DNA of 64,000 nucleotides, taken from positions 1 through 64,000 of the forward strand of contig JAFWEP010000027.1 in the NCBI GenBank assembly GCA_017512885.1. The letters are read 5' to 3'. This DNA comes from Erysipelotrichaceae bacterium (GTDB taxonomy: Bacteria > Bacillota_I > Bacilli_A > Erysipelotrichales > Erysipelotrichaceae). Positions 8,827 through 23,855 of this stretch are shown one piece after another (within the stretch, counting starts at the first letter, position 1; each line of letters opens with the position of its first letter). The notes under the pieces were generated by a model, which had not been told where the DNA came from, did no database searches, and worked only from the letters and a program-made list of their open reading frames with translations. The translations under genes were made by a program, and so were the position numbers.

Positions 8827-8913
8827 TTGTGTGCTTTCACAACAGAGGAGGAGAAAAGGCAGTGTTTATCTGTTTGCCTTTCCATTGTCCTCTGCCTGCC
8901 CTGACCCTATAAT
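8827..8913 (+). promoter_or_regulatory. Activator-type promoter of ACP1 with upstream operator
   Basis: Operator TTGTGTGCTTTCACAA (8827-8842) ends 43 bp before -35 TTGTCC (8885-8890). A 17-bp spacer leads to -10 TATAAT (8908-8913). The same geometry recurs at 9277, 13350, 17127, 21808 and 22010. The bases between operator and -35 also hold an imperfect AAAGGCA/TGCCTTT inverted repeat. Confidence 0.75.
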
Positions 8914-8942: not shown

Positions 8943-9188
8943 ATGTCAAGAGAAGAAATCGTTGAGACTCTGATCTCACTTTGTGCCAAGACTTACCGCA
9001 AGAATGCTGCCGACCTGAGCGAAGCGACCACTTTCGCAGAAGATCTGAAAGGACCGTCCGTCCTCTTCGTCGGTCTGACCTCCCTGATCGAATCCGAATG
9101 TGATGTCATGCTGTCGATCACGGAAGCTGCCGGTGCCAAGACGATCGGTGAACTGGCCGATCTGGTCTTCTCCCGCCAGGGCGAATAA
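8943..9188 (+). CDS. Atypical acyl carrier protein (ACP1)
   Basis: The 81-residue protein has ACP size, acidic character and four-helix layout. The usual DSL attachment motif is replaced: EDLKGPSVLFVGLTSLIE places Ser39 after Gly-Pro rather than Asp. Ser39 is the only candidate for 4'-phosphopantetheine in that place. Two ATGs compete; 8943 is preferred because GGAG is 8 nt upstream, against 2 nt for 8937. It has its own promoter with the regulon operator and a terminator after it, so it is a single-gene unit. It probably serves the neighbouring acyl metabolism rather than fatty acid synthesis. Whether it is phosphopantetheinylated is open. Confidence 0.78.
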   Translation: MSREEIVETLISLCAKTYRKNAADLSEATTFAEDLKGPSVLFVGLTSLIESECDVMLSITEAAGAKTIGELADLVFSRQGE

Positions 9189-9195
9189 GACTTCC

Positions 9196-9222
9196 AGCCG
9201 CGCAAGCGGCTTTTTCTTTTTA
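9196..9222 (+). terminator. Terminator of ACP1
   Basis: Stem AGCCGC/GCGGCT with GCAA tetraloop followed by TTTTCTTTTT. Confidence 0.9.
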
Positions 9223-9230
9223 CAAAAGCT

Positions 9231-9245
9231 TTGTTCTGCACACAA
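9231..9245. promoter_or_regulatory. Additional operator-like site upstream of the MFS promoter
   Basis: TTGTTCTGCACACAA resembles the regulon element (TTGT...ACAA) but is not followed by a -35 at the usual distance. It may be an auxiliary site 32 bp before the main operator at 9277. Confidence 0.35.
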
Positions 9246-9276
9246 TTGCGGAAAACGATATCTGTTCATTTTTTCA

Positions 9277-9363
9277 TTGTGTAAAAACACAAAAACCTAC
9301 TTTCGACTCTCGTGTATTTTGTAGGATGGAAACATTGAGACATCAGCTTGTGAAAACTATACT
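9277..9363 (+). promoter_or_regulatory. Activator-type promoter of the first MFS gene
   Basis: Operator TTGTGTAAAAACACAA (9277-9292) is a perfect inverted repeat with 6-bp arms. Its end is 43 bp before -35 TTGAGA (9335-9340). A 17-bp spacer leads to -10 TATACT (9358-9363). Confidence 0.8.
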
Positions 9364-9391
9364 AAAGGTAGTTTTTATAAAAACTGTTTAT

Positions 9392-9417
9392 TTCTATGGG
9401 TTGCGCACCCCATAGAA
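9392..9417 (+). other. Hairpin in the MFS leader
   Basis: TTCTATGGG/CCCATAGAA with an 8-nt loop lies between the predicted transcription start and the AGGAGG at 9455. It lacks a T-run, so it is not a terminator. It may stabilise or regulate the leader. Confidence 0.5.
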
Positions 9418-9466
9418 GCTTTACAGAATGTTTTTCTGTTCCCAAAACCATAATAGGAGGCAAGTT

Positions 9467-10756
9467 ATGTCTAAAAAGGGGAAAGGCGGTGCCAGCGACT
9501 TCGGTCCGAAGGGCTGGATCATCGTCCTGGTATCAATCGTTTACTTCTATCTGAGCACTGCTGTTACATCTGATGGCGCTAACACGATCAATGCTGTCAT
9601 GCAGCAGAAATTCGGTCTGCAGTCCCTCGCTCCGCTGACATTAGGTCAGACGCTGGGCGGCTGGCTGACTGTCCTGACGATCCCGGTCTTCACCGCGATC
9701 GCTCAGAAGACCGGCGTCAAGAACGTCATCATCGTTTCGCTGGCGATCTTCGCGGTCTGCACATGGTTCATCTTCCATGCTTCTTCCGTTCGCGTTTACC
9801 AGATCTTCGTAACGCTGGCCTGCGCTACACTGATCGGTTTCTCGATGGTCGGTACCGGACAGCTCGGTGCGAACTGGTTCCCGACCAAGAAGGGTATGTA
9901 CATGGGCATCGCAACCTTCGGTATCCCGATCGCTGCGGCTTCTGTCAACCTGATGATGAATGCCATGATGGGCTTCATGCCGTTTGAAAACATCTCCTTC
10001 TTCTTCATTATCGTTTCGATCATCGCGATCATCCTGACCGTCGTCTTCGTCAAGAACAACCCTGAAGAAGCAGGTGCTTTCCCGGATAACGACCAGACCA
10101 TGACCAAGGAAAAGGCTGCTGAGATCGCTGCCAAGGCAGAAGCGATCAAGGCTTCCTCTCCGTGGACGACCAAGAAGGTCCTTTCCTTCAAAGAGACCTG
10201 GATGATCGCTATCGGCTGGGGCTTCCTGATGGGCGGCGCCGGCGGCATCATCTCTCAGTTCGTTGCAGCCGGTATCTCCTGGGGTCACCCGATGAGCTAC
10301 CCGATCATGCTGCTGACGGTCATGTTCCCGGTAGGTATCTTCTTCTCCTGGTTCATTGGTTACGTTGATACCAAGTGGGGCACCAAGGCTGCTTCGCTGG
10401 TCGTCTGTGCCATGGAGATCTTCGGTGCTCTGGTTGCCGGTCTCTTCGGTCATAACGGCGTTGCGCTGGCTCTGGGCGGCGGTTGCTTCATGGGCGCTAT
10501 GTCCGGCGGCAACAACCTGACCATGTCCGTTACCGGTACCAAGTTCGGTCGTTTCGACTTCAACAATGCCTGGTCTGTCATCTCCGTTATCACGAAGGTC
10601 ATCAGCTCCTCGTTCATCGTTCTGGTCTCGATCGTTGCCGGTAAGATCGGCTACACCGGTGCTTACATCGCTGTTGCCTGCACGGTCGTCATCGCTGCTC
10701 TGGTCATCTGGAAGACCGATCTGACCTGCGTCGGACGTATCGATCTGGAAGACTAA
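9467..10756 (+). CDS. MFS transporter, OFA/NarK-like
   Basis: The 429-residue protein has about 12 hydrophobic helices and belongs to the major facilitator superfamily, likely importing an organic anion in exchange or with protons. The cytoplasmic loop NWFPTKKGMYMG between helices 4 and 5 resembles the OFA and nitrate/anion families. A hydrophilic central loop lies near residues 195-225. The ATG at 9467 has AGGAGG 6 nt upstream; earlier in-frame codons have no ribosome site. It is driven by the regulon promoter at 9277-9363 and ended by a terminator at 10786. The substrate is not predictable but probably feeds the island's acyl pathway. Confidence 0.9.
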   Translation: MSKKGKGGASDFGPKGWIIVLVSIVYFYLSTAVTSDGANTINAVMQQKFGLQSLAPLTLGQTLGGWLTVLTIPVFTAIAQKTGVKNVIIVSLAIFAVCTWFIFHASSVRVYQIFVTLACATLIGFSMVGTGQLGANWFPTKKGMYMGIATFGIPIAAASVNLMMNAMMGFMPFENISFFFIIVSIIAIILTVVFVKNNPEEAGAFPDNDQTMTKEKAAEIAAKAEAIKASSPWTTKKVLSFKETWMIAIGWGFLMGGAGGIISQFVAAGISWGHPMSYPIMLLTVMFPVGIFFSWFIGYVDTKWGTKAASLVVCAMEIFGALVAGLFGHNGVALALGGGCFMGAMSGGNNLTMSVTGTKFGRFDFNNAWSVISVITKVISSSFIVLVSIVAGKIGYTGAYIAVACTVVIAALVIWKTDLTCVGRIDLED

Positions 10757-10785
10757 GAAGAGTCATTCGCTAAGTGCGCATAATT

Positions 10786-10834
10786 CCGGGGAGGGCGGGA
10801 TCTCATCTCAGATCTCCCTCCCCGGTTTTTCTTT
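10786..10834 (+). terminator. Long-stem terminator after the first MFS gene
   Basis: CCGGGGAGGG pairs with CCCTCCCCGG (10816-10825), with a further inner pairing, followed by TTTTTCTTT. Confidence 0.88.
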
Positions 10835-10857
10835 GAACGGATCAGGGGGTAAAAACG

Positions 10858-12084
10858 ATGTCAAAGAAGAAGAGCACCTTTCTAAGCGTTGCTTTCGTTC
10901 TGGCGGCTGTATCGATGCTGTGCCAGAACGTTGCCACCCAGATGCTGAATACGACCTTGTCGCCGTTCGCCAACTATCTCTGGCAGTCCAAGACGATGGG
11001 TGGGCTCTTAACGTCCTTCTTCAACATCGGTTCGATCGTGATGGCTTTCCTGTCCGGTCCGCTGATCGAAAGACTGGGCAAACGCAAGAGCATCTTCCTC
11101 TTCAGTCTGCTCTACGGTTTCGCGACCCTGCTCTTTGTGTTCATGCCGAAAGAAGGCGTCTCGCTTTTTGCGAGAGTATTGCAGGGCATCGCCAAAGGGG
11201 TGGTGACCGTTGCCTGCGCTTCCGTCGTTGCGGAAGTGACGCCGGATGAGAATATGAACGAAGGAATGGGGATCTATGGCCTGGGCAATACGCTCTCCAT
11301 GGCCTTCGGTCCGATGATCGCTTTGAACCTGATCGGCACCGAAAACAACTACTCCGCCATGTTTCTGGCCTGTGCTGCCTTTGCGGCCTGCGGTGCGCTC
11401 TTCGGAGCGGGGATCCGCTATACTCCGAAGAAAACGGAGAAAGCGGAAGTGAGGAGCGAAGAATACCACGGCGTCTGGAAGCTCATTGAAAAGAATGCCC
11501 TGCCGGCCGGGATCAACTATACGATCTTCTTCGCATCCTTTGCCTGCGTACTGGTCTTCTCGACGGTCTATGCCCAGGAGATCCTGGGCCTCTCCGCCAA
11601 CCAGATCAGCAGCTTCTACATGGTGGCGGCCGCGACCATGTTCGTGGTAAGGCTCTTTGCCGGAAAGATCGCTGACCGGCACGGTGAACTGACCATGATC
11701 ATCCCCGGCCATCTCTGCATCATCGCTCTGCTTCTGCTGCTGACCTACGGCTGCAAAGGAGAAGCGACCTATCCGATGTTCCTCTTCTGCGGAGCGCTCT
11801 ACGGGATCGGCAATGCGACGGTACAGCCGGCATTGAACTCGATCGCTATCGTGGATTCTCCGGCGGAACGTTCTTCCATTGCCAATGCAACTTTCTATTT
11901 CCTGATGGATTTCGGTATCCTGTTCTCCTCTTCGGTATTCGGGCAGGTCATCGACAAAGCTGCAACTCCGATGCAGGGCTATACGGTCACGTATCTGGCA
12001 TCGGTCGGTATCAATCTGCTGTCGCTCTTCCTGGCGGTGACTTTCATGAGCCGTAAGGCCAGAAGGAAACGCAGCGCGAAATAA
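10858..12084 (+). CDS. MFS transporter (tandem paralogue 1)
   Basis: The 408-residue protein has about 12 membrane helices and is an MFS member of the DHA1-like type. Recognisable is the loop between helices 2 and 3 (GPLIERLGKRKS). It is clearly paralogous to the next gene: both have NEGMG...LGNT...AFGPM in helix 5 and YHGVWKLIEK in the central loop. The ATG at 10858 has CAGGGGG upstream. No regulon operator precedes it, so expression may come from read-through or a weaker promoter. It may import or export a relative of the substrate handled by the island. Confidence 0.88.
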   Translation: MSKKKSTFLSVAFVLAAVSMLCQNVATQMLNTTLSPFANYLWQSKTMGGLLTSFFNIGSIVMAFLSGPLIERLGKRKSIFLFSLLYGFATLLFVFMPKEGVSLFARVLQGIAKGVVTVACASVVAEVTPDENMNEGMGIYGLGNTLSMAFGPMIALNLIGTENNYSAMFLACAAFAACGALFGAGIRYTPKKTEKAEVRSEEYHGVWKLIEKNALPAGINYTIFFASFACVLVFSTVYAQEILGLSANQISSFYMVAAATMFVVRLFAGKIADRHGELTMIIPGHLCIIALLLLLTYGCKGEATYPMFLFCGALYGIGNATVQPALNSIAIVDSPAERSSIANATFYFLMDFGILFSSSVFGQVIDKAATPMQGYTVTYLASVGINLLSLFLAVTFMSRKARRKRSAK

Positions 12085-12105
12085 TCTGTGCCAAAGGAGA
12101 ATATC

Positions 12106-13344
12106 ATGTCGAAAAAACAAACGATCTGGACCAAGGATTTTATCCTGATCTGTCTGGCCGCTCTGGCGACCAATATCACCATGCGCATGCTGGACAGCAA
12201 TCTGGCTTCCTACGCCAGTGTTACCTGGGACTCCCGTTCCTTAGGCGGCCAGCTGACCAGTTTCTTCAATGTCGGTTCGATCCTGATGGCCTTCTTTGCC
12301 GGACGTCTGGTCGACCTCAAGGGCAGAAGGAACATGCTGATGGCTTTCTGCATCATCTTTGCGATCCCGACGATCGCCATGGCGCTGATCCCCTTACCGG
12401 GCGTCGCTCTGGGCGTACGTCTGATCCAGGGTGTCGCCAAGGGTGTCGTGACCGTAGCGATGGCTTCCGTCGTATCGGATATCACTCCGCGCGAACGGAT
12501 GAACGAAGGCATGGGCATGTTCAACCTGGGCAATACGATCAGTTTTGCCTTCGGACCGATGCTGGGTCTTTCTTTAGTCGATAACGGCGGCTATAAGCTG
12601 ATGTTCATCGTCTGTGCGGTCTGCTACGCCTTGGGTGGCGTGATCGCTTACTTCATCAACTACGAGAAGGATCAGAAGCCTGTCGAGACCGTCAAAAAGG
12701 AAGAGACTCCGGTCCCTGCCAGGGAATACCACGGCGTATGGAAACTGATCGAAAAGAAAGCCCTGATCCCGTCCCTGATCAATACCGTCTTCTTCGGCGG
12801 TTATGCCTGCATCCTGGTCTTCCTGACGGTCTATTCGCAGGAGATCCTGCATCTCTCTTCGACGCAGATCTCCTTCTTCTACACGGTCGCTGCCGCAGCG
12901 ATGCTGATCGTTCGTCTGGCAACGGCGAAAGTTGCCGATAAGTTCGGCACCCTGGCAGTCGTCGTTCCGGGCATGCTGGTGGAAGCAGGAGCCCTGCTGC
13001 TGCTGAACGGTCCGGCCAAGAACAGCTATATCGCTTTCCTGGCTGCCGGCGCCTGCTACGGCATCGGCATGGCTGTCGTCTCTCCGGCGCTCAATGCGGC
13101 TGCTGTCGTCGACTCTCCGGCAGACCGTACTGCTACCGCCAACGCCAGCTATTACTTCATGATGGATTTCGGCGTCCTCTTCGCTTCCGCCGGTTTCGGT
13201 GCCCTGATCGATGCTTCCCCGACCCTGGAAGCCGGTTATTCCCGGACCTTCCTGATCAGTGTCGGGATCATTCTGCTCTGCATCGTGCTGACCCTGCTGA
13301 CGATGAATGACAAAGCCCGGGCAAAGCGTCGGGAAGCCGAATGA
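12106..13344 (+). CDS. MFS transporter (tandem paralogue 2)
   Basis: The 412-residue protein is a second MFS carrier, 21 nt downstream of its paralogue and surely in the same transcript. AAAGGAG is 6 nt before the ATG at 12106; the in-frame ATG at 12088 has no ribosome site. Shared motifs are those listed for the gene at 10858, plus a lysine/glutamate-rich central loop (residues about 185-205). Tandem duplication followed by divergence suggests either two related substrates or a heterodimer; the sequence does not decide. Confidence 0.88.
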   Translation: MSKKQTIWTKDFILICLAALATNITMRMLDSNLASYASVTWDSRSLGGQLTSFFNVGSILMAFFAGRLVDLKGRRNMLMAFCIIFAIPTIAMALIPLPGVALGVRLIQGVAKGVVTVAMASVVSDITPRERMNEGMGMFNLGNTISFAFGPMLGLSLVDNGGYKLMFIVCAVCYALGGVIAYFINYEKDQKPVETVKKEETPVPAREYHGVWKLIEKKALIPSLINTVFFGGYACILVFLTVYSQEILHLSSTQISFFYTVAAAAMLIVRLATAKVADKFGTLAVVVPGMLVEAGALLLLNGPAKNSYIAFLAAGACYGIGMAVVSPALNAAAVVDSPADRTATANASYYFMMDFGVLFASAGFGALIDASPTLEAGYSRTFLISVGIILLCIVLTLLTMNDKARAKRREAE

Positions 13345-13349
13345 AAGCG

Positions 13350-13435
13350 TTTAACTTTTGCACAAAAACGATCTGATTTCCTTGTTATTCCTTGGACAAT
13401 GAAACATTGTCCCTCGACTGCAACGATTCTACAAT
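13350..13435 (+). promoter_or_regulatory. Activator-type promoter of the CocE hydrolase with a -35 palindrome
   Basis: A degenerate operator TTTAACTTTTGCACAA (13350-13365) has a good right half, GCACAA. It ends 42 bp before -35 TTGTCC (13407-13412). A 17-bp spacer leads to -10 TACAAT (13430-13435). A separate perfect inverted repeat GGACAATG-AAA-CATTGTCC (13394-13412) covers the -35 and could be a repressor site. Confidence 0.7.
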
Positions 13436-13489
13436 GAAGGTATCAATGGGTGTACGATCCATAAATATCATTGAAAGGAGTGGATTAAA

Positions 13490-15355: not shown

Positions 15356-15366
15356 TCATCAAAACG

Positions 15367-15399
15367 AAAAGAAGGTCCTGAGCGGGGACCTTCTTTTAT
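15367..15399. terminator. Bidirectional terminator between convergent CocE and PucR genes
   Basis: AAGAAGGTCC/GGACCTTCTT with a T-run on the plus side and a shorter one on the minus side. Confidence 0.88.
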
Positions 15400-15413
15400 T
15401 TTGTTCAGAAAGA

Positions 15414-17033
15414 TCAGAGGATCGAAGCGCTCTCCATCAGCGTCTGCGGAATGGTGATGATCCGCAGGGTACGCAGGATGCGTAAGCCCATCATCATCTT
15501 GTAGATGTCTTCGCCGTGGGTCAGATCGCAGTTCAGGATGTCCTTGATCTTGGCCAGCCGGTAGAGCAGGGTGTTCTTATGGATGAAGAGCTGCGCGGCA
15601 GCTTTGGTGGTGTTGCCGTAATTCTCCAGATAGATATAGAGCGTGGTGACCAGATCGGACTGGTTCTCCTTGTCGTGTTCGACCAGTTCCAGCAGCTGCG
15701 GACTGCAGTAGCTTAAGAGATCATCGTGTCTTTCGATCACATGCAGGGCTTCGATCGGAGCCAGATCCTCGAAGTAGGAGACGACCCAGTTCTCATAGAT
15801 GTCGCCCAGTTCCCCGGCCTTCTTGGCCTGGGCATAGTGTCTCTTCGTATCGCCCAGGTTGCGGAACATGTTGCTGACGCCGATCAGCAGATGGTTGGTA
15901 CGGGCCAGCTGTTCCGCTTCGGCATTGATGTAGTCGGTGATCTTGGCGTCGTTGCTGAGGTTGAAGAGGATGACCAGTTCCGTTTCCCGGATGAGGTAGA
16001 AACTGTTGCTGAGCTTTGCCCCTAACTGGGTAGCGATGATGTCGAAGGAAGAGGCATCGATGTTCTTCTGACGGGGCGAAGCGGTGATGACGGCCAGATA
16101 GAATTTATCCCGCAGTTTGATGATCTTGTTGACACGGGTCATCTGGTAGGCGGTATCCGAAGGCACATCCCCGTAGGAGAGCAGATAATTCAGGAACTGA
16201 GCCTTGACCTCGTTCCGGTTGCGGGTGAACAGGGTCTTCTTCTGCAGTTCCTGGGAAAGGACTTCGCCGACCCGCCAGAAGTAGAGCTCATCCACTTCCT
16301 GGAAGGGATGATTCTTCTCCAACAGGATGATGAAGCCGACTTCGATATTCCTGACCCGGATGATCGAGGTCATCTGATTGCAGTTCAGGACCGGGTTAAA
16401 GGAAGTCTTGCTGACGAGCGAGAGACTGCGGATCTCGTCCAGGACTTCGTTCTGTACGAAACCCAGATTGAAGAAATCTTCTACGGATACGATCTTGTTG
16501 GAATTGATCTGCTGCAGGGCAGCTGACAGAGCCGGGTCATTCGCTATGACCTCCGGATCTACGGAATAATTCACGCCGAAGACGCCGACGCTGAAGACGA
16601 AGAGCGGGTTCTGCAGGATGCTGTGTGCGGTATCCAGGATGTGCTGTGCGCCTTCGTTGTCAAAGAGAGCCTGAGTCAGGATGCGCATCGTTTCGTGTAC
16701 GTCTTCTTCCAGAGCCAGACGGCGGGCTACGAAATGCAGGACTTCCTGCATGCCGGAATTCTCGTTCTCCACGAAGATCAGATTGTCGATATGAGAGAGG
16801 ACTTCCTCCGGGACTTCGCAGCGTCTGCCGACGACCACGATGTTCAGATTCACCATCTCTGTCTGCAGATTCAGAAGGTCTTTGATTGTGCCGATGTACA
16901 CTGCATTTTTCAGCAGTACGTCCTCCAGCCGGTAGAGGGGAAAGATCCCGCCGAAAAAGGCGTTTGGATTCTTTAATGTATGAACGTAATACTGGTATAT
17001 ACTCAGCAGGTTCAGAAGGTCATTAATGTTCAT
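15414..17033 (-). CDS. PucR/CdaR-family transcriptional regulator
   Basis: The 539-residue protein ends in the PucR C-terminal helix-turn-helix (about 470-530: YLENYGNTTKAAAQLFIHKN followed by TLLYRLAKI), the hallmark of PucR/CdaR activators of catabolic genes. The N-terminal two thirds form ligand-sensing domains without membrane helices. The frame extends to 17096, but GAAAGGAC lies 7 nt before ATG 17033. Its promoter (TTGTGC, 17 bp, TATAAT) overlaps a copy of the palindrome found at six island promoters. I infer that this protein binds those sites, activating the island and repressing itself. Binding is not proved. Confidence 0.9.
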   Translation of the reverse strand: MNINDLLNLLSIYQYYVHTLKNPNAFFGGIFPLYRLEDVLLKNAVYIGTIKDLLNLQTEMVNLNIVVVGRRCEVPEEVLSHIDNLIFVENENSGMQEVLHFVARRLALEEDVHETMRILTQALFDNEGAQHILDTAHSILQNPLFVFSVGVFGVNYSVDPEVIANDPALSAALQQINSNKIVSVEDFFNLGFVQNEVLDEIRSLSLVSKTSFNPVLNCNQMTSIIRVRNIEVGFIILLEKNHPFQEVDELYFWRVGEVLSQELQKKTLFTRNRNEVKAQFLNYLLSYGDVPSDTAYQMTRVNKIIKLRDKFYLAVITASPRQKNIDASSFDIIATQLGAKLSNSFYLIRETELVILFNLSNDAKITDYINAEAEQLARTNHLLIGVSNMFRNLGDTKRHYAQAKKAGELGDIYENWVVSYFEDLAPIEALHVIERHDDLLSYCSPQLLELVEHDKENQSDLVTTLYIYLENYGNTTKAAAQLFIHKNTLLYRLAKIKDILNCDLTHGEDIYKMMMGLRILRTLRIITIPQTLMESASIL

Positions 17034-17067
17034 GATGCTGTCCTTTCCGGCGAAACAAACCTTTCTC

Positions 17068-17096
17068 ATTATAGGGGTTTTGTGTGATTCGCACAA
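17068..17096 (-). promoter_or_regulatory. PucR-family gene promoter overlapped by the regulon operator
   Basis: On the minus strand -35 TTGTGC (17096-17091) and -10 TATAAT (17073-17068) are 17 bp apart. The operator TTGTGTGATTCGCACAA (17080-17096) covers the -35 and most of the spacer, the position of a repressor site, as expected for autoregulation. Confidence 0.75.
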
Positions 17097-17126
17097 GGGA
17101 TGGACATTTCGCAGTTTTCGGTTTGC

Positions 17127-17212
17127 TTGTTTGATTGCACAAGGTCCTTCCCGGGATCTGCTTTGTTTTGGGGAACCTGCACATTGTTTGTCAAAAGAGA
17201 AACAAATAGAAT
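17127..17212 (+). promoter_or_regulatory. Activator-type promoter of ACP2
   Basis: Operator TTGTTTGATTGCACAA (17127-17142) ends 42 bp before -35 TTGTTT (17184-17189). A 17-bp spacer leads to -10 TAGAAT (17207-17212). Confidence 0.78.
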
Positions 17213-17228
17213 GATATTGTCAAAAGGT

Positions 17229-17245
17229 AAGGGCACTGCGCCCTT
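17229..17245 (+). other. Hairpin just before the ACP2 ribosome site
   Basis: AAGGGC/GCCCTT with a 5-nt loop lies 2 nt before AGGAGG (17248-17253). It may affect translation or mRNA stability, like the leader hairpin at 9392. Confidence 0.5.
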
Positions 17246-17261
17246 GCAGGAGGTTAAGGAA

Positions 17262-17510
17262 ATGACAATTCAGGAAGAAGTAATCGAAGTATTAAAGAAC
17301 AAGGCTGCCAAGCTGTTTGGCGTCGATCCCAACACGCTGGGACCGGAGACCCGTTTCATCGATGATCTGGGCTGCAAGTCCGTCAACATCGTTCAGTTCT
17401 CCGCTGCTCTGGAAGATGAATACGAACTGGAAGTTTCCTACATGGAACTGGCCAGAAAGAAGACCTTCCAGGAAGCTGCTGACTACATGGCCAGTCTGAT
17501 CGAGGGCTAA
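17262..17510 (+). CDS. Atypical acyl carrier protein (ACP2)
   Basis: The 82-residue protein is ACP-like (LFGVDPNTLGPETRFIDDLG is typical of helix 1 and the loop). The attachment motif reads GCKSVNIVQF, so Ser40 is present but Asp is replaced by Lys and Leu by Val. AGGAGG stands 8 nt before the ATG. It has its own regulon promoter and a terminator (17524), and is followed by Pta. It differs from ACP1 at the motif but shares the loss of Asp, so both may be read by an unusual phosphopantetheinyl transferase or act unmodified. Its likely role is acyl carriage in the island pathway. Confidence 0.82.
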   Translation: MTIQEEVIEVLKNKAAKLFGVDPNTLGPETRFIDDLGCKSVNIVQFSAALEDEYELEVSYMELARKKTFQEAADYMASLIEG

Positions 17511-17523
17511 ATCTAAAAAGAAC

Positions 17524-17547
17524 CGGCAGTCGTACGGCTGCCGTTTT
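17524..17547 (+). terminator. Terminator of ACP2
   Basis: CGGCAG/CTGCCG stem followed by TTTT. It separates ACP2 from pta, so pta needs partial read-through or its own start. Confidence 0.7.
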
Positions 17548-17558
17548 CATGAAGGGTA

Positions 17559-17576
17559 TTGTGCAAAGTAGCACAA
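17559..17576. promoter_or_regulatory. Perfect palindrome of the regulon type directly before pta
   Basis: TTGTGC-AAAGTA-GCACAA has perfect 6-bp arms and lies 17 nt before the pta ATG. It has no promoter at the downstream distance used by the other sites. It overlaps a weak TATTGT -10 candidate, so it may repress or act as a roadblock. Confidence 0.65.
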
Positions 17577-17593
17577 AGAAAGGAAACACTACT

Positions 17594-18595
17594 ATGGATA
17601 TCATGGAAAAGATCTACGCGCAGGCTGCTGCTGATCCGCAGCGCGTAGCGTTCCCGGAAGCCACGGAAGAAAAGATCCTGCTGGCTGGCCGCGAGTGTGT
17701 CGACAAGGGTCTGGTCAAGCCGGTCCTGGTCGGTGATCCGGCTGCCATCAAGGCCGCTGCCGAGAGCTTCAGCATCTCTCTGGACGGTATGGAGATCTAC
17801 GATGCCGTCGACGAAGAAAAACTGAATGAGCTCGTACAGGAATACCTGCAGATCAACGATATGTTCTCGGAGAAATCCCTGAAGAGAAAGGGCGCCAAGG
17901 ACCCGATGTTCGTAGCCGACTATCTGCTGGCTCTGGGCAAGGTCGACGCTTCCTTCGCCGGTCTGACCCATACGACCGGTGACGTCATCGCTGCCGGCGC
18001 TGCTTATGTCGGACTGCAGGACGGCATCACCACTCCTTCTTCGATCGGTATCTTCAAGATCCCGGGATACGAAGGATCCGAAGGCGAACTGCTGGGCTTC
18101 GGTGATTCCGCTGTCTGCGTCAATCCGGGACCGGAAGAACTGGCTTCCATCGCCATGTCCGCCTGTGAGACCGTTTCTTCGCTCTTAGGCTGGGAGCCGC
18201 GCTGCGCCATGCTGAGCTACTCTACGGACGGTTCTGCTGAGAGCCCGCTGGTCGAGAAGGTCCGCGAAGCTCTGCGCATCGTTAAGGAAAAGAAACCGGA
18301 TCTGAAGATCGACGGCGAATTCCAGCTGGATGCTGCGATCAACCCGGCTGTTGCTGCCAAGAAGGTCAAGAGAGAAAGTGCTGTTGCCGGTAAGGCCAAC
18401 ATCATCATCTGGCCGGATATCAACGTCGGCAATATCGGTGTCAAACTGGTCCAGACCTTCGGCCGTGCCGATGCCTACGGACCTCTGCTCCAGGGCTTCA
18501 AGAAGATCGTATGCGACTGCTCCAGAGGTGCGCCGGTCTCCGAACTGGTCGGCAATATCGCCATGGCTGCTGTCCGTGCACAGAAGCTGAAATAA
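17594..18595 (+). CDS. pta: Phosphate acyltransferase (phosphotransacetylase-like)
   Basis: The 333-residue protein transfers an acyl group from CoA to phosphate, giving the acyl-phosphate used by the downstream kinase. The C-terminal half has class I Pta signatures: IDGEFQLDAAI, NIIIWPDINVGNIGVKLVQ and the Ser-Arg of CDCSRGAP. It resembles Pta more than phosphotransbutyrylase, although its partner is annotated as butyrate kinase; the chain length accepted is therefore uncertain. The start at 17594 has AAAGGAAA upstream. It lies 10 nt before buk, so the two form an operon. Confidence 0.9.
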   Translation: MDIMEKIYAQAAADPQRVAFPEATEEKILLAGRECVDKGLVKPVLVGDPAAIKAAAESFSISLDGMEIYDAVDEEKLNELVQEYLQINDMFSEKSLKRKGAKDPMFVADYLLALGKVDASFAGLTHTTGDVIAAGAAYVGLQDGITTPSSIGIFKIPGYEGSEGELLGFGDSAVCVNPGPEELASIAMSACETVSSLLGWEPRCAMLSYSTDGSAESPLVEKVREALRIVKEKKPDLKIDGEFQLDAAINPAVAAKKVKRESAVAGKANIIIWPDINVGNIGVKLVQTFGRADAYGPLLQGFKKIVCDCSRGAPVSELVGNIAMAAVRAQKLK

Positions 18596-18605
18596 GGTAC
18601 GGACG

Positions 18606-19712
18606 ATGGCTGACTACAAGGTATTTGCGATCAATCCCGGTTCCACTTCCACCAAGATCGCTCTCTTTGAAGGAGAGAAGTGCCTCTTCTCCAAGACCGT
18701 CGATCATGATGCAGCTGAACTGAAGAAATTTGCCGGCGTTTCCGATCAGCTTCCTTACCGTAAGGAAACGATCATGAACGCTCTGAAAGAAGCCGGTGTC
18801 ACGCTGGACGGTGTCGACGCTTTCGTCGGACGCGGCGGCGGACTGCTGGCGATCGAAGGCGGCGTCTACGCTGTCAACGATATCCTGCTTGACCATGCGA
18901 CCAGAGGGGCCAACGGTGTTCAGCACCCGGCTCAGTTAGGTCCGCAGATCGCTCATGAACTGGCTGCTGCTGCCGGAAAACCGGCCTTCGTCGTCAATCC
19001 TCCGGATACGGATGAACTGCAGGACGAAGCCCGTATGACCGGTATCAAGGGCGTCTACCGTCATGTCCACCTGCATGCCCTGAACCTGAAGGAGACTGCG
19101 ATCCGTCATGCCAAGTCCCAGGGCAAGAAGTATGAAGAACAGAACTATGTCGTCTGTCACCTGGGCGGCGGTCTCTCTGTCAGTGCTCATCGCAAAGGTC
19201 AGATGGTCGACGGCAACGACATCGTCGGCGGCGACGGACCGATGGCTCCGACCCGCTGCGGTGCGGTCCCGACGACGGAAATGATCAAGCTCTGCTTCGC
19301 TGAAGGCGCCAACCGCAAGGAACTGACCAACCTGGCCATGAAGACCGGCGGTCTGGTCTCTCATCTGGGAACTTCCGATGCCCGTGAAGTCCGCAAGATG
19401 ATCGCAGCCGGCGACAAGAATGCCGAGAGAGCCTGGAAGGCCATGGTCTACCAGATCTGCAACTATATCGGTTCCATGGCGACCGTCCTGCACGGACAGG
19501 TCGACGGCATCCTCTTAGGCGGCGGTATGGTTCATGACGAAGGTCTCGTCAATGACATCAAAGAGGCCTGCGGCTGGATCGCCCCGATCTATGCCTATCC
19601 GGGTGAATTCGAGATGGAAGCGATGGCAGCAGGTGCCAACCGTGTCCTGAACGGTGAGGAAAAACTGAAGGAATACACCGGGAAACCTCGCTGGGAAGGC
19701 TTCAACGACTAA
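18606..19712 (+). CDS. buk: Butyrate kinase (second copy)
   Basis: The 368-residue acyl kinase is paralogous to the gene at 6025. Signatures are NPGSTSTKIALFEGE at the N-terminus, CHLGGGLSVSAHRKGQMVDGN mid-protein and a glycine-rich GILLGGGM near the end. It makes ATP from the acyl-phosphate produced by the adjacent phosphate acyltransferase. The start lies 10 nt after the pta stop, with only a weak ribosome site, so translation may be coupled. A strong terminator (19727) follows. Substrate could be butyrate, acetate or a branched or longer acid. Confidence 0.93.
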   Translation: MADYKVFAINPGSTSTKIALFEGEKCLFSKTVDHDAAELKKFAGVSDQLPYRKETIMNALKEAGVTLDGVDAFVGRGGGLLAIEGGVYAVNDILLDHATRGANGVQHPAQLGPQIAHELAAAAGKPAFVVNPPDTDELQDEARMTGIKGVYRHVHLHALNLKETAIRHAKSQGKKYEEQNYVVCHLGGGLSVSAHRKGQMVDGNDIVGGDGPMAPTRCGAVPTTEMIKLCFAEGANRKELTNLAMKTGGLVSHLGTSDAREVRKMIAAGDKNAERAWKAMVYQICNYIGSMATVLHGQVDGILLGGGMVHDEGLVNDIKEACGWIAPIYAYPGEFEMEAMAAGANRVLNGEEKLKEYTGKPRWEGFND

Positions 19713-19726
19713 CTGAAAGAGCTGCG

Positions 19727-19761
19727 TGCATGGCGGCTGAGTGCCGCCATGCATATTTTTT
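19727..19761 (+). terminator. Strong terminator after pta-buk
   Basis: An 11-bp stem TGCATGGCGGC/GCCGCCATGCA (19727-19737, 19743-19753) is followed by TATTTTTT. The next coding frame begins inside it, so a downstream start was chosen. Confidence 0.92.
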
Positions 19762-19769
19762 GCCAAAAT

Positions 19770-20573
19770 ATGGAAGAATTCTATACCAATCGTGAGGGGC
19801 GTAAACTGTTCGTCCGCCGGGAAGGAGAAGGGGAGACGATCCTGCTGATCCACGGAGCAATGGTCGATGCGGATTTCTATGCGGATCTTTCAAAGATCCT
19901 TTCCAGGAGATATCAGGTCATCACTTATGACCGCCGCGCTTACTCCCGTTCGGAGGACTGCGAAGATGCGTCTCTGACCTCACAGGTCGAAGATGCAGCA
20001 GAGCTCCTGAAAGCTTACGGCAGCGGAAGAGCGGTCGTGGTCGGCTGCAGCGCCGGCGCTCTGATCGCCCTGAAACTGGCAGAACGCTATCCGGAACTGG
20101 TCCGCCGCACCTATATCGACGAAGCGCCGCTGATCTTCTTCAGCGATGCACTGAACGAAGAAGAAAAACAGTGGCTGTCGGAGATGAGTGAACTGGTCGA
20201 TGCCGGCAAGGTCCGCAAAGCGCTGATGAAGTTCATCATCGTCTTTGCCAGCATACCTGATCCGCATGCCAGGATCCTGCCGCCGGAAATGGTCGATCAG
20301 CAGATGAAGAACGGCAATGTCTATATTGCCCGGGAGTATCCGGAACAGTTCCGTCTGCGCGAAGACTTTTATGACTGGGAGCAGCTTGCGCAGCGCGATA
20401 TCGTCTGGCTGATCGGAGATACCAGCAAGGATCTCTATGCCGCTAAGACCACGAAAGCGGCGGCTGCCAGACTGGATCAGAGCGTCTTCTGCATCGGTGG
20501 CGGACACAATGCCGCCCGTGACCTGCCGGAAGAGTTCGCCTGCTTCCTCTGCGGTCATCTGCAGCTTCATTAA
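19770..20573 (+). CDS. Alpha/beta hydrolase
   Basis: The 267-residue cytoplasmic protein has the alpha/beta hydrolase fold: the oxyanion segment LLIHGAMVDADF, the nucleophile elbow VGCSAGA (Ser near residue 100), and a C-terminal GGGHNAARD His. It resembles lactone or carboxylester hydrolases. The ATG at 19770 follows the pta-buk terminator directly and has no Shine-Dalgarno sequence, so transcription start is unclear. It overlaps no other gene and is followed after 12 nt by the MFS gene, with which it forms an operon. It may hydrolyse an ester or lactone, or an acyl-thioester, of the island's substrate. Confidence 0.85.
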   Translation: MEEFYTNREGRKLFVRREGEGETILLIHGAMVDADFYADLSKILSRRYQVITYDRRAYSRSEDCEDASLTSQVEDAAELLKAYGSGRAVVVGCSAGALIALKLAERYPELVRRTYIDEAPLIFFSDALNEEEKQWLSEMSELVDAGKVRKALMKFIIVFASIPDPHARILPPEMVDQQMKNGNVYIAREYPEQFRLREDFYDWEQLAQRDIVWLIGDTSKDLYAAKTTKAAAARLDQSVFCIGGGHNAARDLPEEFACFLCGHLQLH

Positions 20574-20585
20574 AGGAGAATAGAA

Positions 20586-21803
20586 ATGGATTACACAAAG
20601 AAAAGATGGCAGGTATTGATCGCCTGCTGCCTGGTAAACCTCTGCATCGGTTCGCTCTACGCCTGGAGCGTATTCGCCGGACCGCTGCTGGAAAAATTCA
20701 ATGGTCTCGGTGCGAACCTGAGCAGTCTGGCCATCGTCTTCACGATCGCCAACGGCGTCGGTCCGATCACGATGATCTCCGGCGGTTTCTTCAATGACCG
20801 TCTGGGTCCGAAATGGGTCATCTTCTTAGGCGGCATCCTGTTCGGTCTGGGCATGATCTTCTCCGGAAGAGTGACCGGTCTCGGCGGACTGATCCTGACT
20901 TACGGTCTGATGGTCGGTCTCGGCATCGGTCTGATCTACGGCGCTACCGTCAGCAACTGCGTCAAGTTCTTCCCTGACAAGAAGGGCCTGATCGGCGGTC
21001 TGACCACTGCTGCCTACGGTGCTTCCTCGGTCATCATCCCGCCGGTCGTCGTCCGCATCAATGCGGCGATGGGCATCGAGAAGACCTTCCTGATCATCGG
21101 CCTGGTCATGCTGGCGGTGATCTGTGCCTCTTCCTTCCTGATCCTGAAATGTCCGGACGGTTTCCTGCCGGAAGGCTATGTCCCGCCGGTCCGCAGCGGA
21201 GGAAACAAGGCTGTCGACTACGACTGGAAGGGGATGCTGAAAAGCGTTACCTTCTATGTCATGTTCCTGATGCTGCTCTGCGGGGCGTTCTCCGGTCTGA
21301 TGGTCACCTCTTCTGCATCGGCCTTCTCCCAGAAGATGGCCGGCATGGATGTGGCACAGGCTGCCAATATCGTCTCGCTGATCGCTCTCTTCAATACCTT
21401 CGGCCGGATCGCTGCCGGCTATATCTCCGACAAGATCGGTGCTGTCAACACGATGAGCCTGAGCTTCGTACTGGCGATCCTCGGTCAGCTCTGCGTCTAC
21501 TTCTCACAGAACGGCAATGTCCTCTATTATCTGGGCTGCGCCCTGATCGGCTTCTGCTTCGGTTCTCTGATGGGCACCTACCCCGGCTTTACCGCCGGTC
21601 AGTTCGGCAGCAAGCACAACAGCGTCAACTACGGCATCATGTTTATCGGTTTCGCAGCTGCCGGTTATTTCGGACCGCAGATCATGAACTCGATCTATGC
21701 TGCCGGCGGACAGTACCGTCCCGCTTTCCTGGTCGCTGCCGGAATGTCGGCGGTCGGACTCTTGCTGAGCTTCGTCTTCCGGAAACTGCAGGTAAAGCAC
21801 TGA
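20586..21803 (+). CDS. OFA-family MFS transporter
   Basis: The 405-residue protein has the oxalate/formate antiporter hallmark near its start, CIGSLYAWSVFAGPL, and about 12 membrane helices. The family exchanges carboxylates across the membrane, or couples them to protons. AAAGGAG stands 6 nt before the ATG. It follows the alpha/beta hydrolase gene in one operon. It probably exports the acid product or imports the acyl substrate of the island. Exact substrate is not predictable. Confidence 0.92.
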   Translation: MDYTKKRWQVLIACCLVNLCIGSLYAWSVFAGPLLEKFNGLGANLSSLAIVFTIANGVGPITMISGGFFNDRLGPKWVIFLGGILFGLGMIFSGRVTGLGGLILTYGLMVGLGIGLIYGATVSNCVKFFPDKKGLIGGLTTAAYGASSVIIPPVVVRINAAMGIEKTFLIIGLVMLAVICASSFLILKCPDGFLPEGYVPPVRSGGNKAVDYDWKGMLKSVTFYVMFLMLLCGAFSGLMVTSSASAFSQKMAGMDVAQAANIVSLIALFNTFGRIAAGYISDKIGAVNTMSLSFVLAILGQLCVYFSQNGNVLYYLGCALIGFCFGSLMGTYPGFTAGQFGSKHNSVNYGIMFIGFAAAGYFGPQIMNSIYAAGGQYRPAFLVAAGMSAVGLLLSFVFRKLQVKH

Positions 21804-21807
21804 TCGT

Positions 21808-21893
21808 CTGTGCATTGGCACAATAAATCGTGAATTAAGTCACAGATATTCAGGACTCTGTACATATCTTCTTGCAGAGAAGGGGAATATACT
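21808..21893 (+). promoter_or_regulatory. First activator-type promoter upstream of the thiolase
   Basis: Operator CTGTGCATTGGCACAA (21808-21823) ends 42 bp before -35 TATCTT (21865-21870). A 17-bp spacer leads to -10 TATACT (21888-21893). The -35 is poor, as expected for an activator-dependent promoter. Confidence 0.65.
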
Positions 21894-22009
21894 ATCCTTA
21901 ATAGGAATCTACAACCTGTTTCCTACATCCCGACAGTTCCTGGAAATTCCCCTTTCTATCTTGCCATTTGGAATCTGTCGTCTGCACGGCTTCGGTCGTG
22001 CTTTTAATT

Positions 22010-22097
22010 TTGTGCGATTTATACAAAATCAGCGAACTGTGTGAAAGTGCTTTTAGAAAATGCGTACATAGTACAGCGGATAGGTCTGCACTACAAT
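22010..22097 (+). promoter_or_regulatory. Second activator-type promoter upstream of the thiolase
   Basis: Operator TTGTGCGATTTATACAA (22010-22026) ends 43 bp before -35 TAGTAC (22069-22074). A 17-bp spacer leads to -10 TACAAT (22092-22097). The 317-bp gap between the OFA gene and the thiolase holds these two promoter modules and no gene. Confidence 0.72.
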
Positions 22098-22120
22098 AAA
22101 AACAAGGAGGTAAATGACCT

Positions 22121-23419
22121 ATGTATCATATCAATAAGACCGAGATACATCCCTATAAGCGGAGCGTTTCGATCATCGGTGTCGGCTGTACGCCCTTCAT
22201 GAACACCATCGATAATCCGGAAACGAACGGCTTAACGGAGGGTGAACTCTTCGGCTATGCCGGACTGCAGGCGATGGAAGATGCCGGCGTCCGTCCCAAA
22301 GATGTCGATTTCTACTACCATGGCTGCGCCAGCCCGCTGAACGGTTCCAACTACCTGACTCCGAACATGCAGGTAGCGGAATGGGTCGGTATGCGCGGCA
22401 AGGCTTCCATCCATCATTCGGAAGCCTGCTGCACCGGTTATCTGGGCCTTGAACTGGCCGCCAATGCGATCGCCTCCGGCAAGTATGACTGTGTCCTGAC
22501 CGGTGCGGTCGAATACGGTGACGGTCTGGCGATCCAGGGCCTGCCCTCGATCTACCGTAAGAAGTTCAGCTTCCAGGAATTCCAGATCTCGACGGAATGG
22601 CTCACCGACAATGCCTACACCCGTCATCTGCTCTGCAACATCGGACACGACAACAGCGCGCTCTGGTATCAGACGCAGTACGGTCTCACGGATGATGAGA
22701 TCGACAAGGCACTCTGCCAGCTGGCTGTCATTGCCCGCCGCAATACCGTCAACAACCCTCTCGCCATCATTCATAAGACTTATGACGAAGACGCAAAGGA
22801 AGCCGGATTCGATAATGTCCTGGACTACATGCAGTCCGCCTTCAACCCGAAGGTCGGCGGCATCATGCGTATCTCCGGTCTGGAACAGAAGTGCGACGGC
22901 GCTGCTGCTGTCCTGCTCTGCGCCACGGAGAAAGTCGAAGAACTGACGCACGGCAAAGTGAAGCCGATCGAAGTCCTCGGTATCGGCTGTGCTGCTCTGG
23001 AAGCCTCCAACCCCTATCTGGAAGTCTACGGCACGATGGAAGCAGACCGTCAGGTCAAAGCCCGCACCGGCATCGATCCTTCCGAGATCGACCTGCTCTA
23101 CGCCAATGACTTCATCATCGGCTCTCAGCTGATCGCTGCCGATATCTCCGGCTATATCCCGAAGGGTGAAGGCTGGAAGTATGTCATGGACGGACGTACC
23201 GGCAAGGACGGCGATAAGCCGATCAACCCGAACGGCGGACGTACTGCCTTCGGTCATGCCCATGCGGCATCCGGTCTGGCAGACGTCTACGATGCTGTCA
23301 AGCAGATGAGAGGTCTGGCCGGTGATCATCAGGTCAAGAAGACCGTCAATACGACCTATCTGCGCGGTTTCGGTGGTGGACAGAACCTCTGTGACATCAT
23401 CATCCGCAACAAGGACTAA
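22121..23419 (+). CDS. Thiolase-family protein (SCPx/DUF35-partner type)
   Basis: The 432-residue protein has the thiolase fold. The active-site Cys is in EACCTGYLG (Cys103, aligned with CASG; Cys104 is adjacent). The second histidine motif is GHAHAASG instead of GHPxGATG, and the C-terminal Cys motif is GGGQNLCD. Archaeal-type and steroid-side-chain thiolases of this group work with a DUF35 OB-fold partner, and such a gene follows directly. It therefore may carry out thiolytic or retro-Claisen/retro-aldol C-C cleavage of an acyl-CoA (or acyl-ACP). AAGGAGG precedes the ATG. It is under two regulon promoters. Confidence 0.88.
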   Translation: MYHINKTEIHPYKRSVSIIGVGCTPFMNTIDNPETNGLTEGELFGYAGLQAMEDAGVRPKDVDFYYHGCASPLNGSNYLTPNMQVAEWVGMRGKASIHHSEACCTGYLGLELAANAIASGKYDCVLTGAVEYGDGLAIQGLPSIYRKKFSFQEFQISTEWLTDNAYTRHLLCNIGHDNSALWYQTQYGLTDDEIDKALCQLAVIARRNTVNNPLAIIHKTYDEDAKEAGFDNVLDYMQSAFNPKVGGIMRISGLEQKCDGAAAVLLCATEKVEELTHGKVKPIEVLGIGCAALEASNPYLEVYGTMEADRQVKARTGIDPSEIDLLYANDFIIGSQLIAADISGYIPKGEGWKYVMDGRTGKDGDKPINPNGGRTAFGHAHAASGLADVYDAVKQMRGLAGDHQVKKTVNTTYLRGFGGGQNLCDIIIRNKD

Positions 23420-23429
23420 GGAGGGTACC

Positions 23430-23855
23430 ATGGCTGTTAAATTGGAACGGATCGTAAAGAAGTATTACGACGCCCTGGAAGAAGGGAAAGTACTGAGCCG
23501 CGTCTGCAAGGAATGCGGTTCTACGGAATGGCCTCCGGTCATGGCCTGCAATGTCTGCGGCTGCACCGATATGGAATGGAAAGAGATCAGCGGTGAAGGC
23601 GTCATCACGAACTTCGTGCTGCCTTCGGTCATGTCCTTAAAACCGCAGTGGAAGGAACTGGAGCCCTATGGCTACGGTGTCGTTCAGCTGAAGGAAGGCC
23701 CGGAAAAGAATGTTATGGTCATGGGCCTGACCAAGAAGAACGAGAAGGAAGTACGGGCCAACCTGCCGTATCCCTGCCACGTAAAGATCGTACAGCGGGA
23801 AACACCGGTCGGAAAGTACAAGACCGCTGTCTTCGAGCTGGGACCGAAAGAATAA
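23430..23855 (+). CDS. DUF35 zinc-ribbon/OB-fold acyl-CoA-associated protein
   Basis: The 141-residue protein has a rubredoxin-like zinc ribbon (CKECG near residue 26 and CNVCGC near residue 41) and a C-terminal OB fold with EGVITNFV. Such proteins form complexes with thiolases and bind the CoA part of the substrate or position the thiolase subunits. AAGGAGGG stands 5 nt before the ATG. It starts 11 nt after the thiolase stop and ends at a strong terminator, so the pair is an operon. By analogy with archaeal thiolase-DUF35 and bacterial Ltp2-DUF35, it should be required for thiolase activity. Confidence 0.92.
   Translation: MAVKLERIVKKYYDALEEGKVLSRVCKECGSTEWPPVMACNVCGCTDMEWKEISGEGVITNFVLPSVMSLKPQWKELEPYGYGVVQLKEGPEKNVMVMGLTKKNEKEVRANLPYPCHVKIVQRETPVGKYKTAVFELGPKE

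What the first reader, a model, noticed from the sequence alone, without database searches (positions are those of the whole stretch)
8943..23855. Possible undescribed acyl-catabolic system: two ACPs, four carriers, CocE, Pta-Buk, hydrolase and thiolase-DUF35
Co-regulated genes cover import (MFS/OFA), hydrolysis (CocE, alpha/beta hydrolase), C-C cleavage (thiolase with DUF35 partner) and substrate-level ATP formation (Pta, Buk). No dehydrogenase, hydratase or CoA ligase is present, so this is not ordinary beta-oxidation. Two ACP-like proteins lacking DSL and driven by the same operator point to ACP-linked or otherwise unusual acyl handling. The combination is one I do not recognise.
Basis: inference. 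Interest (0 to 1): 0.72.

Follow-up and report, generated by a model that had tools for sequence, protein, structure and literature searches.

The report
ACP-tethered, CoA-sparing acyl energy pathway
A gut bacterium carries a conserved set of genes in which a small acyl carrier protein, rather than free coenzyme A, appears to pass acyl groups cut from an unknown compound to the two enzymes that turn them into ATP; if true, this is an undescribed way for gut and rumen bacteria to make energy.

Summary
The genes are as described and belong together. Two modules recur in Erysipelotrichaceae and in Lachnospiraceae and Oscillospiraceae MAGs from gut and rumen: thiolase–DUF35–ACP–Pta–Buk, and ACP–CocE–(PPTase)–Pta–Buk. 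The window carries both, with PucR, four MFS carriers and one shared operator. In its 2.09-Mb genome only six exact TTGTGN6-8CACAA sites exist. Four are in this cluster and one is upstream of a second thiolase–DUF35-ACP locus.

The ACPs lack "DSL" but keep the phosphopantetheine serine (71/71). They are fused to DUF35 (12 cases) or to CocE through an Ala/Pro linker (2 genomes), and dedicated PPTase genes lie beside them. The Pta of these operons is one clade that keeps the catalytic Ser/Arg but has lost all three arginines at the CoA contacts (0/63, against 19/19 in housekeeping Ptas). The genome has no KAS I/II and no fatty-acid ACP, so these ACPs are not for lipid synthesis.

Best reading: CocE and thiolase–DUF35 load acyl groups onto holo-ACP; Pta makes acyl-phosphate from acyl-ACP; Buk makes ATP. 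Substrate and direction are not shown. No description was found in the open-access library searched. All evidence is from sequence.

The parts
8827..8842 (.). operator TTGTGTGCTTTCACAA upstream of ACP1
   Evidence: exact palindrome; one of 6 in the genome
8943..9188 (+). ACP1, acyl carrier protein of the DUF35-linked type (Ser in GPSV)
   Evidence: PF00550 above cut-off; 45-56% identical to the ACP domain of DUF35-ACP fusions in L045, L051, L052 and L053
9277..9292 (.). operator TTGTGTAAAAACACAA upstream of MFS1
9467..10756 (+). MFS1 carrier (OFA-like)
   Evidence: PF07690; conserved in G001 (90%) and Dielma fastidiosa (64%) modules; CAI rank 3 of 64
10858..12084 (+). MFS2 carrier
   Evidence: PF07690; homologue in L048
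12106..13344 (+). MFS3 carrier, 48% identical to MFS2
   Evidence: PF07690; homologues in L048 and L053
13490..15355 (+). CocE/NonD-family alpha/beta hydrolase (TTG start), proposed acyl donor to ACP2
   Evidence: PF02129 + PF08530; ACP gene adjacent or fused in relatives; CAI rank 1 of 64
15414..17069 (-). PucR-family regulator (start at 17033, 17069 or 17096)
   Evidence: HTH_30 and GGDEF_2; conserved next to the ACP2 module
17080..17096 (.). operator TTGTGTGATTCGCACAA between PucR and ACP2
   Evidence: counterparts in L048, L052 and L058
17127..17142 (.). second operator-like site TTGTTTGATTGCACAA (1 mismatch)
17262..17510 (+). ACP2, acyl carrier protein of the CocE/Pta-linked type (Ser40 in CKSV)
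   Evidence: PF00550; Ser invariant
17559..17576 (.). operator TTGTGCAAAGTAGCACAA upstream of Pta-Buk
17594..18595 (+). Pta of the ACP-associated clade; only PF01515 protein in the genome
   Evidence: PF01515; catalytic Ser/Arg kept, Arg28/87/133 of M. thermophila Pta lost
18606..19712 (+). butyrate kinase family acyl kinase (Buk)
   Evidence: TIGR02707, 403.6 bits against cut-off 289.1
19770..20573 (+). small alpha/beta hydrolase
   Evidence: PF00561; homologue in L048 and several Clostridia loci
20586..21803 (+). OFA / SfMCT-type monocarboxylate MFS carrier
   Evidence: NF049980, 411.8 bits against cut-off 320
21808..21823 (.). operator-like site CTGTGCATTGGCACAA (1 mismatch)
22010..22026 (.). 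operator-like site TTGTGCGATTTATACAA (1 mismatch) upstream of thiolase
22121..23419 (+). thiolase-fold enzyme with invariant Cys103 and His379
   Evidence: PF22691 and PF00108; A1 alignment; PDB profile hits to BbsA-type, PhlC and archaeal thiolases
23430..23855 (+). DUF35 (zinc ribbon + OB) partner of the thiolase
   Evidence: PF01796 and PF12172; next to the thiolase in 69/69 testable loci
6025..7125 (+). second butyrate-kinase-like protein (Buk0), possible further member
   Evidence: 50% identical to Buk; homologue near MFS1 in L048, and a Buk/Buk0-like kinase directly behind ACP2 in L053

Best explanation
The block encodes an ACP-tethered, CoA-sparing route for energy-conserving acyl cleavage. 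A dedicated holo-ACP takes acyl groups from two kinds of acyl-enzyme: the serine of the CocE hydrolase (ester or amide cleavage, used as an acyltransferase) and the cysteine of the thiolase-DUF35 pair (C-C cleavage of a beta-dicarbonyl or C-acyl compound, as in PhlC or BbsAB). The Pta of this clade converts acyl-S-ACP and phosphate to acyl-phosphate and holo-ACP. Buk then makes the free acid and ATP. MFS carriers import the substrate and export the acid. PucR switches the regulon on through TTGTG(N6-8)CACAA operators. Shown by sequence: the gene set, its conservation, the fusions, the invariant Ser, the PPTases, the Pta residue losses and the regulon-specific operator. Inferred: the acyl transfers, the direction, PucR as the operator-binding protein, and the substrate.
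For: (1) Co-occurrence: thiolase-DUF35 in 69/69 testable loci, ACP next to it in 56/63, Pta or Buk close by in 35/41 (layouts). (2) Fusions: DUF35-ACP in 12 cases, Thio-DUF35 in 7, ACP-(Ala/Pro linker)-CocE in L157, ACP-ACP-CocE in L242. (3) ACP gene beside nearly every CocE of this group. (4) PPTase genes in or beside the operons, e.g. ACP-CocE-ACPS-Pta-Buk in L058. (5) Ppant serine 71/71. (6) Pta: Arg28, Arg87 and Arg133 of M. thermophila Pta absent in 63/63 operon Ptas, which form one clade, while Ser309 and Arg310 are kept in 63/63; 19/19 housekeeping Ptas keep all. (7) No KAS I/II; the only other PP-binding protein is DltC in a dlt operon; this is the only Pta in the genome. (8) Operator. 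(9) Codon adaptation: CocE, Pta, MFS1, Buk and Thio rank 1, 2, 3, 4 and 6 of 64 window genes. (10) Import systems near relatives: SBP_bac_5 and MFS_2 carriers.
Against: No enzyme activity, acyl-ACP or holo-ACP has been measured. Pta and Buk are reversible, so direction is not fixed by sequence. Seven thiolase-DUF35 loci have no ACP next door (L111, L113, L115, L116, L130, L141, L172). The role of the lost Arg residues rests on published work on one archaeal Pta that I know but did not read here. The single Pta of this genome might also serve acetyl-CoA. The substrate is unknown. Loci are not fully independent (many are related MAGs).
Confidence: 0.6

Rival explanations
1. Biosynthetic direction: Buk and Pta spend ATP to activate short-chain acids as acyl-ACP, and thiolase-DUF35 (like PhlBC or MucBC) and CocE use acyl-ACP to acylate a small molecule that MFS carriers export.
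For: Pta and Buk are reversible; ACP, PPTase, thiolase-DUF35 and MFS genes resemble a small biosynthetic cluster; the thiolase matches PhlC and the MucABC acyltransferase complex in the PDB; SnoaL-like protein near L119.
Against: Module genes have the highest codon adaptation in the window, in the range of rpoB/rpoC; importers (SBP_bac_5, OFA/SfMCT, MFS_2) and reductase modules recur near relatives; a PhlA/HMGS-like third subunit, present in PhlABC, is missing from the module.
Confidence: 0.22
2. Ordinary CoA-dependent acyl catabolism in which the ACPs play no catalytic role or a regulatory one.
For: All enzyme families have CoA-dependent relatives; the same genome has a CoA-linked thiolase-DUF35 cluster with type III CoA-transferases.
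Against: Recurrent ACP fusions to DUF35 and CocE, PPTases in the operons, invariant Ser, and loss of all three CoA-contact arginines in the Pta clade.
Confidence: 0.1
3. CocE is an acyl-ACP thioesterase that releases acids from ACP, not an acyltransferase that loads it.
For: CocE-family proteins are hydrolases; ACP-CocE fusions would also fit a thioesterase.
Against: Direct hydrolysis would waste the thioester that the adjacent Pta-Buk would conserve; ACP-CocE-PPTase-Pta-Buk operons without a thiolase (L058) need a loading enzyme, and CocE is the only candidate in the operon.
Confidence: 0.12
4. The ACPs belong to fatty-acid, lipid or teichoic-acid synthesis and sit here by chance.
For: PF00550 family members.
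Against: No KAS I/II in the genome; DltC is a separate gene in a dlt operon; conserved linkage, fusions and shared operator.
Confidence: 0.02

Closest known systems
Pta-AckA and Ptb-Buk pathways
   Same: Same two enzyme families making acyl-phosphate and ATP
   Different: Here Pta has lost the CoA-contact arginines and is linked to a dedicated ACP and PPTase
Citrate lyase (CitD) and malonate decarboxylase (MdcC) ACPs
   Same: A dedicated ACP used outside lipid synthesis, in catabolism (own knowledge)
   Different: The ACPs here are PF00550-type; no citrate lyase or malonate decarboxylase domain was found in the module; here the ACP would feed Pta-Buk
PhlABC, MucABC and archaeal thiolase/HMGS/DUF35 complexes
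   Same: Thiolase plus DUF35; PhlC makes and breaks C-acyl bonds through an acyl-Cys and lacks the CoA-binding residues (PMC6392133)
   Different: No PhlA/HMGS-like subunit here; an ACP is present
BbsAB (benzoylsuccinyl-CoA thiolase) and Ltp2-ChsH2
   Same: Two-subunit thiolase-DUF35 enzymes that cleave C-C bonds
   Different: Those act on CoA thioesters; no ACP
PlsX
   Same: Makes acyl-phosphate from acyl-ACP (own knowledge), a precedent for ACP as donor to an acyl-phosphate former
   Different: Anabolic (phospholipids), different family
CocE/NonD hydrolases (closest solved: 3ib3, S. aureus)
   Same: S15 + PepX_C domains, Ser nucleophile region conserved
   Different: Operon-linked or fused ACP; no such link found described

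Membership tests
CoA-dependent phosphotransacetylase (Pta) | PF01515 fold and catalytic Ser309/Arg310 | tested here: met
   63/63
CoA-dependent phosphotransacetylase (Pta) | Arg87 and Arg133 (CoA phosphate contacts) and Arg28 | tested here: not met
   0/63 in the operon clade, 19/19 in housekeeping Ptas
CoA-dependent phosphotransacetylase (Pta) | Activity with CoA | not testable with these tools
   needs enzyme assay
Butyrate kinase | Above the TIGR02707 cut-off | tested here: met
   403.6 bits against 289.1
Acyl carrier protein | PP-binding fold with modifiable Ser | tested here: met
   ACP domain pLDDT 90-96 in the fusion model
Acyl carrier protein | Phosphopantetheine attached | not testable with these tools
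   PPTase genes adjacent in relatives; two PPTase-family genes in the own genome
Fatty-acid synthesis ACP | DSL motif and FASII genes in the genome | tested here: not met
Citrate lyase / malonate decarboxylase ACP system | CitD/MdcC-type ACP with lyase or decarboxylase subunits | tested here: not met
   only PF00550 and the listed families found in the module
PhlABC / HMGS-thiolase-DUF35 complex | Thiolase and DUF35 subunits | tested here: met
PhlABC / HMGS-thiolase-DUF35 complex | Third KASIII/HMGS-like subunit | tested here: not met
   none among module genes
Two-subunit thiolase-DUF35 (BbsAB, Ltp2-ChsH2) | Thiolase plus DUF35 with catalytic Cys and His | tested here: met
   Cys103 and His379 invariant
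CocE/NonD hydrolase | S15 and PepX_C domains, Ser nucleophile | tested here: met
CocE/NonD hydrolase | Complete Ser-His-Asp triad | tested here: inconclusive
   Ser212 and His332 invariant; Asp259 of cocaine esterase aligns to His309
Beta-oxidation | Dehydrogenase, hydratase and CoA ligase with the thiolase | tested here: not met
   none in 8943-23855

The most novel reading that the evidence does not exclude
A fermentation route in gut and rumen bacteria in which a protein-bound phosphopantetheine replaces coenzyme A at every step from bond cleavage to substrate-level phosphorylation, with an ACP-specific phosphotransacylase and ester- and C-C-cleaving enzymes that load the ACP directly.
Probability: 0.5. 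Interest if true: 0.9.

Novelty: new variant of a known kind. Interest (0 to 1): 0.77.

Why it matters
Pta–kinase ATP formation is taught as strictly CoA-based. A clade of Pta without the CoA contacts, tied to its own ACP, PPTase and ACP-fused cleaving enzymes, would be an ACP-dependent energy pathway. It recurs in Lachnospiraceae, Oscillospiraceae and Erysipelotrichaceae of gut and rumen, including the cultured Dielma fastidiosa and Pseudobutyrivibrio xylanivorans, and would therefore be common and testable. It would also give these bacteria a way to keep part of the bond energy of esters and C-acyl compounds that simple hydrolysis loses, and would change how 'Pta' and 'butyrate kinase' genes are read in predictions of short-chain fatty acid production.

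Tried and rejected
Fatty-acid-synthesis ACPs: rejected, no KAS I/II and no FAS ACP. ACPs as decayed or non-functional because 'DSL' is missing: rejected, Ser 71/71. Chance operators: rejected. Beta-oxidation: rejected, no such genes. Citrate lyase / malonate decarboxylase: no such domains. AlphaFold of the ACP–CocE fusion: ACP domain confident (pLDDT 90-96), residues 88-156 below 50, hydrolase core poor from a shallow alignment (mean 61.7), so docking was not interpreted. AlphaFold of the Thio-DUF35 fusion: moderate (mean 66.1); the fold search returned thiolases of the SCP2, archaeal, BbsA, PhlC and MucC types without a clear winner. Substrate from neighbours: reductases (FMN_red, FAD_binding_2, NfnB-like), GFO/IDH/MocA, SnoaL-like, AKR-4Fe4S, amidohydrolase and Opp-type importers recur, but no single substrate follows. 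Paper searches in open-access full text gave no description of this combination. Self-trained gene calls failed on some loci (antisense ORFs); tblastn layouts were used instead.
Full report
WHAT IS THERE. The window is contig C4:1-64000 of a 2.09-Mb genome.

CONSERVATION. Relatives show two recurrent modules. Module A is thiolase–DUF35–ACP–Pta–Buk: G045 (L055), G040 (L056), G004 (L057; contig ends after Pta), Dielma fastidiosa (L053, L054) and many Clostridia loci. Module B is ACP–CocE–(PPTase)–Pta–Buk with PucR: L058, L061, L232, L233, L241-L244 and others. In 80 loci from named genomes, found with a thiolase alignment, DUF35 follows the thiolase in 69/69 testable cases, an ACP follows in 56/63, and Pta or Buk lies within a few kb in 35/41. 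These loci come from Lachnospiraceae, Oscillospiraceae, Erysipelotrichaceae, Pseudobutyrivibrio, Clostridium caldaquaticum and other taxa, mostly gut and rumen. They are not all independent. In the own genome a second thiolase / DUF35-ACP pair sits beside rpoC on C49.

ACP IS PHYSICALLY LINKED TO BOTH CLEAVING ENZYMES. ACP domains are fused to DUF35 in 12 cases (two ACP domains in L099 and L100) and to CocE in L157 (ACP, Ala/Pro-rich linker, CocE in one 715-residue frame) and L242 (ACP-ACP-CocE, 832-residue frame). Thiolase and DUF35 are fused in 7 cases. AlphaFold gives the fused ACP domain pLDDT 90-96 and the linker below 50. PPTase genes lie within or beside the operons. The serine is invariant in 71/71 module ACPs, followed by V/I in 65 and by S/T in 6.

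A PTA THAT HAS LOST ITS COA CONTACTS. I aligned 63 operon Ptas with Methanosarcina thermophila Pta (chain 1qzt, residues taken) and with 19 housekeeping Ptas of relatives. Ser309 and Arg310 are kept in 63/63. Arg28, Arg87 and Arg133 are absent in 63/63, and kept in 19/19 housekeeping Ptas. The 63 form one clade (FastTree support 0.90). From my own knowledge of mutagenesis of that enzyme (Iyer and Ferry 2001, not read here), Arg87 contacts the 3'-phosphate and Arg133 the 5'-phosphate of CoA. Loss of exactly these contacts with the catalytic pair intact is what a donor without the adenosine-nucleotide part of CoA, such as acyl-ACP, would allow. D. fastidiosa (G026) and G004 hold both kinds of Pta; the window genome holds only this kind.

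NOT LIPID SYNTHESIS. The own genome has no KAS I/II. Its only other PP-binding protein is a DltC-like protein beside dlt genes.

REGULATION. The palindrome TTGTGN6-8CACAA is strongly enriched in the block's intergenic DNA. Genome-wide there are six exact sites: four here, one at C49:2402-2417 about 0.2 kb upstream of the second thiolase, and one at C34 of other context. Similar sites lie upstream of CocE or between PucR and ACP2 in L048, L049, L051, L052, L058 and L061. That PucR binds them is inferred from the divergent gene pair.

EXPRESSION. Against a small rpoB/rpoC/rplL/rplJ reference set, CocE, Pta, MFS1, Buk and thiolase rank 1, 2, 3, 4 and 6 of 64 window genes; module genes are higher than the rest (Mann-Whitney p = 0.0008, 13 against 51). 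This fits a heavily used metabolic route better than a minor biosynthetic cluster, but is indirect.

MECHANISM. Thiolase-DUF35 enzymes such as PhlBC form an acyl-cysteine from a C-acyl donor and can work without the CoA-binding residues (PMC6392133). The module thiolase keeps the Cys (C103) and the His (H379). CocE keeps its Ser and a conserved His; the acid is uncertain. The simplest chain is acyl-enzyme to acyl-S-ACP, then acyl-phosphate (Pta), then acid and ATP (Buk). Shown: genes, linkages, residue losses. Inferred: every chemical step, and the direction. The substrate is open. The thiolase suggests a beta-dicarbonyl or C-acyl compound and CocE an ester or amide; recurrent reductases near relatives suggest an unsaturated or aromatic precursor in those species.

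COMPARISON. The same genome holds a contrasting thiolase–DUF35 cluster with an HMGS-like protein and type III CoA-transferases and no ACP or Pta (L062), so CoA-linked and ACP-linked versions coexist. Catabolic ACPs are known in citrate lyase and malonate decarboxylase, and acyl-phosphate from acyl-ACP is known from PlsX (own knowledge). I found no description of an ACP-linked Pta–kinase route in the open-access library; subscription papers and preprints were not searched.

VERDICT. The catabolic reading is likely but not proven. I rate it a new variant of a known kind (Pta–Buk energy conservation with ACP in place of CoA), close to categorically new if acyl-ACP turnover by this Pta is shown.

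Noticed in passing
6025-7125: Second butyrate-kinase-like gene without a Pta beside it; a similar kinase sits directly behind ACP2 in L053, so it may be an accessory acyl kinase of the same system.
   Followed up: partly
8506-8820: Small charged protein of 104 aa with two similar repeats (LLGEDGKLDxEDV...), codon adaptation among the top six in the window, no Pfam match.
   Followed up: no
856-2895: Putative lipoprotein with FMN-binding and FAD_binding_2 domains, like extracellular flavin reductases; possible electron-acceptor system.
   Followed up: no
L062:3109-15979 (own genome C38:160109-172979): Separate CoA-linked cluster: PucR-like regulator, CitMHS carriers, HMGS-like protein with a zinc ribbon, thiolase, two type III CoA-transferases, alpha/beta hydrolases, MR/MLE enolase.
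   Followed up: partly
L059:56-12998: CocE paralogue inside a cluster with ETF subunits, BcrAD-type activator, 2-hydroxyacyl-CoA dehydratase, type III CoA-transferase and AMP-ligase, next to sugar-type ABC genes; conserved in G001 and G003.
   Followed up: partly
G000 whole genome: No KAS I/II, no fatty-acid ACP and only one PTA_PTB protein found; the species may depend on external fatty acids.
   Followed up: partly
L111, L113, L115, L116, L130, L141, L172: Thiolase-DUF35 loci of the same family without an adjacent ACP; unexplained exceptions.
   Followed up: no
G000:C34:192783-192800: The one exact operator palindrome outside the system, TTGTGGATATATCCACAA; context not resolved.
   Followed up: partly
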